Of a stretch of DNA of 64,000 nucleotides, positions 5-334 are shown piece after piece (the first letter of the stretch is position 1; the number at the start of each line of letters is the position of its first letter). The translations under genes were made by a program, and so were the position numbers. This DNA comes from Branchiostoma floridae (Eukaryota; Chordata; Leptocardii; Amphioxiformes; Branchiostomatidae): contig NC_049980.1 in NCBI RefSeq assembly GCF_000003815.2, positions 24,173,808 to 24,237,807 of the forward strand, read 5' to 3'. A model generated the notes under the pieces. It saw only the letters and a list, made by a program, of their open reading frames with translations, did no database searches and had not been told where the DNA came from.

Positions 5-127
5 ATGGTGTCAGATGTGCAGCTGGCCATCTTTGCCAACATGCTGGGCGTCACCCTGTTCCTCCTGGTAGTGCTCTATCATTACATCTCCATCAACAAC
101 CCCAAGGCGAAAGCCAAAGATGACTGA
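5..127 (+). CDS. OST4: OST4 micro-protein, copy A (oligosaccharyltransferase subunit 4)
   Basis: OST4 is a single-pass ER membrane micro-protein that stabilises the oligosaccharyltransferase complex, which transfers glycans to asparagine. The ORF is 40 codons, beginning [19 protein letters not shown] and ending with a Lys/Asp-rich cytosolic tail. The start [14 protein letters not shown], the hydrophobic span at about residues 9-27, and the VVLYHY...NNPK end are the family signature, and the length matches the usual 36-40 residues. The ATG lies four bases inside the window, so any upstream exon or promoter cannot be seen. A second complete OST4 ORF starts 87 bp after this stop on the same strand. 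No polyA signal lies between them, so they probably share a transcript or splice alternatively. Assignment is firm; whether this copy is expressed is unknown. Confidence 0.9.
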
Positions 128-214
128 AGAATGCATCATAAAGGAGATTCCCTGTACATAACTGTGAGAAGGCAAGCCCCAAAATCTTCTTGTTGATCTT
201 TGCTTTCAGTCAGC

Positions 215-334
215 ATGATCTCAGACGTTCAGCTTGCTATCTTTGCCAACATGATGGGGGTGTCCCTCTTCCTGCTGGTGGTTTTATACCACTATGTAGC
301 AGTCAACAACCCAAAGACCAAGAGGGAGGAATGA
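215..334 (+). CDS. OST4: OST4 micro-protein, copy B
   Basis: This is a second full OST4 ORF of 39 codons, with the same N-terminal [11 protein letters not shown], one transmembrane helix (residues about 9-27) and a tail reading [12 protein letters not shown]. From known family sequences, this tail is closer to the vertebrate form (VAVNNPK) than copy A, which reads ISINNPK. The ATG is preceded by a strong splice-acceptor-like stretch (pyrimidine-rich, ending TTTCAG at 209) five bases before it. Splicing from an upstream exon could therefore skip copy A and present copy B as the first ORF. Downstream, an AATAAA at 563-568 is the only clear polyA signal, and a GTAAGT at 375 could be a 3' UTR donor. 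The two copies differ at many silent sites, so the duplication is not recent. Confidence 0.92.

What the first reader, a model, noticed from the sequence alone, without database searches (positions are those of the whole stretch)
5..334. Two complete, diverged OST4 micro-ORFs 87 bp apart on one strand
Both ORFs are intact and family-like but differ in their tails and in many silent positions. No polyA signal separates them, and a strong acceptor-like site lies 5 bp before the second ATG. This could be a dicistronic mRNA, or a switch in which splicing removes copy A to expose copy B. Two OST4 isoforms could give alternative oligosaccharyltransferase complexes.
Basis: partly seen in the sequence, partly recalled or inferred. 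Interest (0 to 1): 0.7.

Follow-up and report, generated by a model that had tools for sequence, protein, structure and literature searches.

The report
Tandem OST4 genes, probably one transcript
Two old, intact copies of the tiny gene for OST4, a part of the enzyme that attaches sugars to proteins, sit 87 bases apart, and splice signals suggest that the first copy lies inside an intron of the second, so that one RNA could give either protein.

Summary
Window 5-127 and 215-334 (+) are complete OST4 ORFs of 40 and 39 codons (PF10215, E 9e-16 and 1e-16), 87 bp apart. About 19.5 of 25.5 synonymous sites differ (saturated) but only 7 of 36 aligned residues: an old duplication with both copies selected. 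Copy B is the more human-like (2 differences in 34; A has 6).

With the acceptor at 209/210 (rank 173 of 7,815 AG) it frames copy B as an exon, 210-374. Of 300 small ORFs examined, only B has both signals. The gap's two best donor-like sites are weak and would make introns of 38 and 46 nt. So, if the acceptor is used, B's leader most likely comes from upstream of A, and A lies in B's intron.

I favour one transcription unit: splicing to 210 gives B; retaining A gives A. Plain dicistronic translation of B is disfavoured. No RNA, upstream DNA or other species could be examined, so expression, species and conservation are unproven.

The parts
5..127 (+). OST4 copy A, complete ORF of 40 codons; diverged tail and YHYISINN stretch
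   Evidence: Pfam Ost4 8.9e-16; six differences from human OST4 over the first 34 residues
128..214 (+). 87-bp gap between the ORFs; best donor-like sites are weak (163/164 and GC-type 171/172)
   Evidence: fold of 120-220 not notable (z -1.21, 23 of 200 shuffles as stable)
137..142 (+). CATAAA, weak variant polyadenylation signal starting 10 nt after copy A's stop; U-rich stretch follows at about 185-208
   Evidence: sequence; that this hexamer is a usable variant is recalled knowledge
190..209 (+). 3' splice-site-like TTGTTGATCTTTGCTTTCAG, five bases before copy B's ATG (a weaker AG ends at 213)
   Evidence: score 8.0, rank 173 of 7,815 AG in the window, both strands; the second, 6.27, rank 416
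210..374 (+). predicted internal exon that holds the whole of copy B
   Evidence: the only one of 300 small ORFs examined with both acceptor and donor at the thresholds used
215..334 (+). OST4 copy B, complete ORF of 39 codons, the more human-like copy
   Evidence: Pfam Ost4 1.2e-16; two differences from human OST4 over 34 residues
372..380 (+). 5' splice-site-like AAG|GTAAGT, 40 nt after copy B's stop
   Evidence: score 11.99, rank 4 of 7,936 GT; 2 exact AAGGTAAGT in the window against 0.58 expected, 9 of 100 shuffles had at least 2
563..568 (+). AATAAA, possible polyadenylation signal if the 374 donor is not used
856..875 (+). best-scoring downstream 3' splice-site-like sequence, TTGTGCTTTTTCTTGCACAG; candidate start of a 3'UTR exon (others precede 761 and 454)
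   Evidence: score 9.18, rank 77 of 7,815; 761 scores 7.98 and 454 scores 7.43
1333..1338 (+). AATAAA, candidate distal polyadenylation signal

Best explanation
An old duplication left two complete OST4 coding segments in one transcription unit. A leader exon upstream of the window (inferred, not seen) joins either to the segment with copy A, giving A protein, or to the acceptor at 209/210. The second choice removes A as part of the intron and gives B protein from exon 210-374, followed by a 3'UTR exon. Shown here: both ORFs, the mark of selection on both, and the acceptor and donor sequences. Inferred: use of those sites, a shared leader, and how A-bearing RNA ends (at CATAAA 137, at AATAAA 563, or spliced at 374). 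If an A-bearing RNA were spliced at 374, A's stop would lie 247 nt before the junction, far beyond the usual 50-55 nt limit (recalled), so it should be prone to nonsense-mediated decay. B's stop, 40 nt before the junction, should escape. Splicing and polyadenylation choice would therefore set the A:B ratio.
For: Saturated synonymous divergence with dN 0.11 and no second-position change in 36 codons; 0 of 5,000 simulated unconstrained copies stayed open with 7 or fewer residue changes. Acceptor 209/210 ranks 173 of 7,815 and donor 374/375 ranks 4 of 7,936. Of 300 ORFs of 30-60 codons examined, 1 (B itself) has an acceptor of at least 8.0 within 20 nt upstream and a donor of at least 11.9 within 100 nt downstream; still 1 of 300 at 8.0 with 9.0 and at 7.0 with 9.0. 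The 8 plausible introns of the CSE1-like gene in the window are 268-447 nt, while the two best donor-like sites in the gap would make introns of 38 and 46 nt. AUGs at 15, 41, 120 and 131 come before B on an unspliced RNA.
Against: No transcript was seen. The DNA upstream of A is outside the window, so the leader exon and A's acceptor or promoter are unknown. The splice matrices were recalled, human-like ones. Acceptor 8.0 exceeds only 1 of the 8 acceptors inferred, and those were picked with the same matrix. A donor-like site inside A, after 67, scores 3.48, close to the weakest inferred CSE1 donor (3.67); joined to 210 it would make a 142-nt intron and break A, so a leader that starts in A cannot be wholly excluded. 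The rank tests were made after looking at the site. No test of conservation in other species was possible.
Confidence: 0.55

Rival explanations
1. Two ordinary tandem genes. A ends at a weak polyadenylation site soon after its stop, and B starts from its own promoter inside A or the gap with a very short leader. The acceptor-like sequence is chance.
For: CATAAA at 137 with a U-rich stretch after it. A strong acceptor by itself is not rare: 10 of 300 small ORFs, B included, have one of at least 8.0 within 20 nt upstream.
Against: The acceptor coincides with a top-ranked donor on the other side of B. A promoter and leader would have to fit in 87 bp or inside A's ORF.
Confidence: 0.17
2. One unspliced dicistronic mRNA carries A then B; B is translated by leaky scanning or reinitiation.
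For: No AATAAA or ATTAAA lies between the ORFs. OST4 is the first ORF of a bicistronic mRNA (OST4_FAM32A) in green algae, where the second ORF is read by leaky scanning (PMC11892635, passages).
Against: A has a strong start context (A at -3, G at +4), and AUGs at 15, 41, 120 and 131 precede B; [quoted passage not shown] It leaves the acceptor and donor around B unexplained.
Confidence: 0.13
3. A spliced-leader operon: one pre-mRNA is cut between the genes, A is polyadenylated, and a spliced leader is joined to the acceptor before B.
For: The gap looks like an operon spacer as I recall them: short, weak polyadenylation signal, U-rich stretch, acceptor 5 nt before the ATG.
Against: [quoted passage not shown] later reports widen this (a 2025 chaetognath paper, PMC12460157, uses the words trans-splicing and operon often by the listing). 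A recalled Sm-site form, AATTTTTGR, occurs once in the window against 4.09 expected, which is uninformative; no spliced leader was sought in the genome.
Confidence: 0.08
4. Assembly artefact or haplotype duplication.
For: None in the sequence; raw reads were not available.
Against: 28 of 108 aligned bases differ and synonymous sites are saturated, far too much for alleles or a misassembled repeat; the 3' flanks show no similarity above shuffles.
Confidence: 0.02

Closest known systems
OST4 (PF10215), small subunit of the oligosaccharyltransferase complex; human 2lat_A
   Same: Length and sequence; both copies well above the Pfam cut-off.
   Different: Two complete copies in tandem, with different tails. 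PMC4568590 (passages) names OST4 as one of only two comparably conserved annotated small proteins under 50 residues; the passages seen mention no duplicate.
Bicistronic OST4_FAM32A of green algae (PMC11892635, passages)
   Same: An OST4 ORF is the first of two ORFs on one strand, close together.
   Different: There the second ORF is an unrelated gene and is read by leaky scanning; here it is a second OST4 behind a splice acceptor.
Mutually exclusive, tandemly duplicated exons (for example OGDH 4a/4b; PMC7969005 and PMC6071210, starts of abstracts in the listing)
   Same: Neighbouring alternative coding segments whose intervening sequence is unlikely to be spliced out (for OGDH, by distant branch points).
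   Different: Each segment here is a whole ORF with its own start and stop, and copy A has no good donor.

Membership tests
OST4 (PF10215) | Match above Pfam's gathering score over the 34-position profile | tested here: met
   57.9 and 60.7 bits against 25, profile 1-33 of 34, both copies
OST4 (PF10215) | Assembles with STT3 in the oligosaccharyltransferase complex | not testable with these tools
   needs expression and pull-down
Mutually exclusive exon pair | Each alternative has both an acceptor and a donor | tested here: not met
   B has both. A's best donor-like sites after its stop score 4.83 (GC type) and 4.82, the strength of the 648th and 656th GT site of 7,936; A's acceptor would lie outside the window and was not testable
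Mutually exclusive exon pair | Intron between the alternatives too short to splice | tested here: inconclusive
   38 or 46 nt for the two candidate donors, at most 82 nt for any donor in the gap, against 268-447 nt for 8 introns inferred in the window; the organism's true lower limit was not measured
Dicistronic mRNA | Both ORFs on one mature mRNA, both translated | not testable with these tools
   no RNA or ribosome data; the upstream AUG pattern is unfavourable
Spliced-leader operon | Short gap with an acceptor next to the downstream ATG | tested here: met
   87 bp, acceptor 5 nt before the ATG
Spliced-leader operon | The organism has a spliced leader that is joined to the downstream mRNA | not tested

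The most novel reading that the evidence does not exclude
One animal gene carries two complete, anciently diverged OST4 micro-ORFs in series, and alternative splicing, tied to polyadenylation choice and nonsense-mediated decay, picks which OST4 isoform enters the oligosaccharyltransferase complex: a whole-protein switch nested in an intron, kept since the duplication.
Probability: 0.25. Interest if true: 0.6.

Novelty: new variant of a known kind. Interest (0 to 1): 0.4.

Why it matters
OST4 is among the shortest widely conserved animal proteins (PMC4568590, passages). If one locus can make two versions by splicing, it would give a compact natural test of whether the smallest OST subunit tunes complex assembly (for example STT3A against STT3B forms), and an example of alternative whole ORFs chosen by a 3' splice site. 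It would also warn that gene models which keep one ORF per transcript would lose one of the two proteins.

Tried and rejected
Third copy in the window: none found. Duplication extending into the 3' flank: local alignment score 18 against a mean of 16.6 and a maximum of 28 in 200 shuffles, so none detectable. RNA structure in 120-220: z -1.21, 23 of 200 shuffles as stable, not notable. Rfam at gathering scores: no match in the window. A downstream second cistron at 907-1128: no Pfam match at E 0.01. OST4 pattern in the viral and prokaryote collections: 0 matches in each, as expected for an animal gene. AATTTTTGR (a recalled metazoan Sm-site form) in the window: 1 match, 4.09 expected, uninformative.

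Papers: ten counted searches. Amphioxus with OST4 gave 0 papers; OST4 with dicistronic, bicistronic or polycistronic gave the algal work, a glycoengineering review (PMC8042171, listing only) and PMC4568590. In these searches I saw nothing that describes a tandem OST4 in an animal; most subscription papers are not held. Passages were also seen in PMC4359375, PMC10917797, PMC8191290, PMC6277126 and PMC12460157; they did not bear on the tandem. PMC4359375 reports ribosome footprints and tagged-peptide translation of the fly gene CG33774 (40 residues), which I recall to be fly OST4.

Rows dropped: one search examined 11 neighbouring exon pairs: 2 gave no junction, and 1 (1,539 nt, scores 0.38 and 3.06) was set aside by my judgement as implausible; 8 are quoted. 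The control (300 ORFs of 30-60 codons) left out ORFs that hold N or lie near either window end, copy A among them, and includes copy B.

Full report
What is there. The window opens four bases before an ATG. Two complete ORFs of 40 and 39 codons lie on the + strand at 5-127 and 215-334. Both match Pfam's Ost4 model over 33 of 34 positions at 57.9 and 60.7 bits, cut-off 25, and both have human OST4 as best match in the PDB. Over the first 34 residues copy B differs from the human protein at 2 places and copy A at 6. A degenerate pattern for the motif [10 protein letters not shown], with up to 3 mismatches, finds these two places and no other, with none expected by chance.

Both copies are old and selected. 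Over 36 aligned codons 16 differ silently and 7 in sense; differences by codon position are 8, 0 and 20. About 19.5 of 25.5 synonymous sites differ (95% range of the proportion 0.56-0.91, so dS is at least about 1), and dN is 0.11. In 5,000 simulated unconstrained copies with the same 28 changes, none stayed open with 7 or fewer residue changes. The 3' flanks show no similarity above shuffles. This excludes alleles, a recent duplicate or a decayed copy; it does not show that both are expressed.

Splice signals. With a recalled metazoan-type matrix the acceptor that ends at 209 ranks 173 of 7,815 AG sites on both strands of the window, and the donor AAG|GTAAGT after 374 ranks 4 of 7,936 GT sites. 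Of 300 ORFs of 30-60 codons examined in the window only copy B has an acceptor of at least 8.0 within 20 nt upstream and a donor of at least 11.9 within 100 nt downstream; the answer is the same at acceptor 8.0 with donor 9.0 and at 7.0 with 9.0. Taken singly the signals are less rare: 10 of 300 have the acceptor, and 12 of 300 a donor of at least 9.0. As a yardstick I placed junctions of the CSE1-like gene of the same window: of 11 exon pairs 2 gave none and 1 was set aside as implausible; the other 8 have introns of 268-447 nt, donors 3.7-10.6 and acceptors 7.2-12.4. Copy B's donor (12.0) is above all 8; its acceptor (8.0) is above only one. Those junctions were chosen with the same matrix and from a recalled query, so this is a rough guide.

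Why the layout points to one transcription unit. If the acceptor at 209 is used, copy B needs a donor upstream. The gap's two best donor-like sites, after 163 and 171, are weak (4.8) and would make introns of 46 and 38 nt; no donor in the gap could make one longer than 82 nt. A donor-like site inside A, after 67, scores 3.48 and would make a 142-nt intron while breaking A. The donor most likely lies upstream of copy A, outside the window, and copy A then lies inside that intron. Copy A can be kept by using an upstream acceptor or start site. This is inference from sequence; I could not read upstream of the window because the genome search did not complete in seven tries.

What a dicistronic mRNA would face. 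Copy A has A at -3 and G at +4. AUGs at 15 and 120 (out of A's frame), 41 (A's own Met 13) and 131 (in the gap) precede copy B; the frames from 120 and 131 end at 161 and 196. Ribosomes that reach copy B without splicing would need to pass these or reinitiate. In green algae OST4 really is the first ORF of a bicistronic mRNA, and leaky scanning past it is the mechanism the authors favour (PMC11892635, passages only).

RNA decay and ends. The donor at 374 lies 40 nt after copy B's stop and 247 nt after copy A's. By the usual junction rule (recalled) a spliced A-bearing RNA would be a decay target and a spliced B RNA would not. A weak CATAAA at 137 could instead end an A mRNA; AATAAA occurs at 563 and 1333.

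Limits. No RNA, protein, upstream DNA or second species was available. Paper searches found no animal tandem OST4, which is weak evidence of absence in print.

Noticed in passing
window 23909-24036: Two 63-bp tandem copies (90% alike) beside the start of an exon of a CSE1-like (exportin-2) gene; the open frame there repeats 21 residues ending SDSDQELF, which may instead be a duplicated acceptor region.
   Followed up: partly
window 11725-13874: A non-LTR-type retrotransposon: endonuclease (PF14529) and reverse transcriptase (PF00078) in two overlapping + strand open frames.
   Followed up: partly
window 14413-14691: Three copies of a 60-bp unit (14413-14601) running into a GTTTGGTTTT array of 10.9 copies (14583-14691).
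   Followed up: no
window 907-1128: A 73-codon + strand ORF inside the candidate 3'UTR exon after the acceptor-like site before 876; no Pfam match.
   Followed up: partly
window 2745-2807: A 22-bp unit, 2.9 copies, 97% matches.
   Followed up: no
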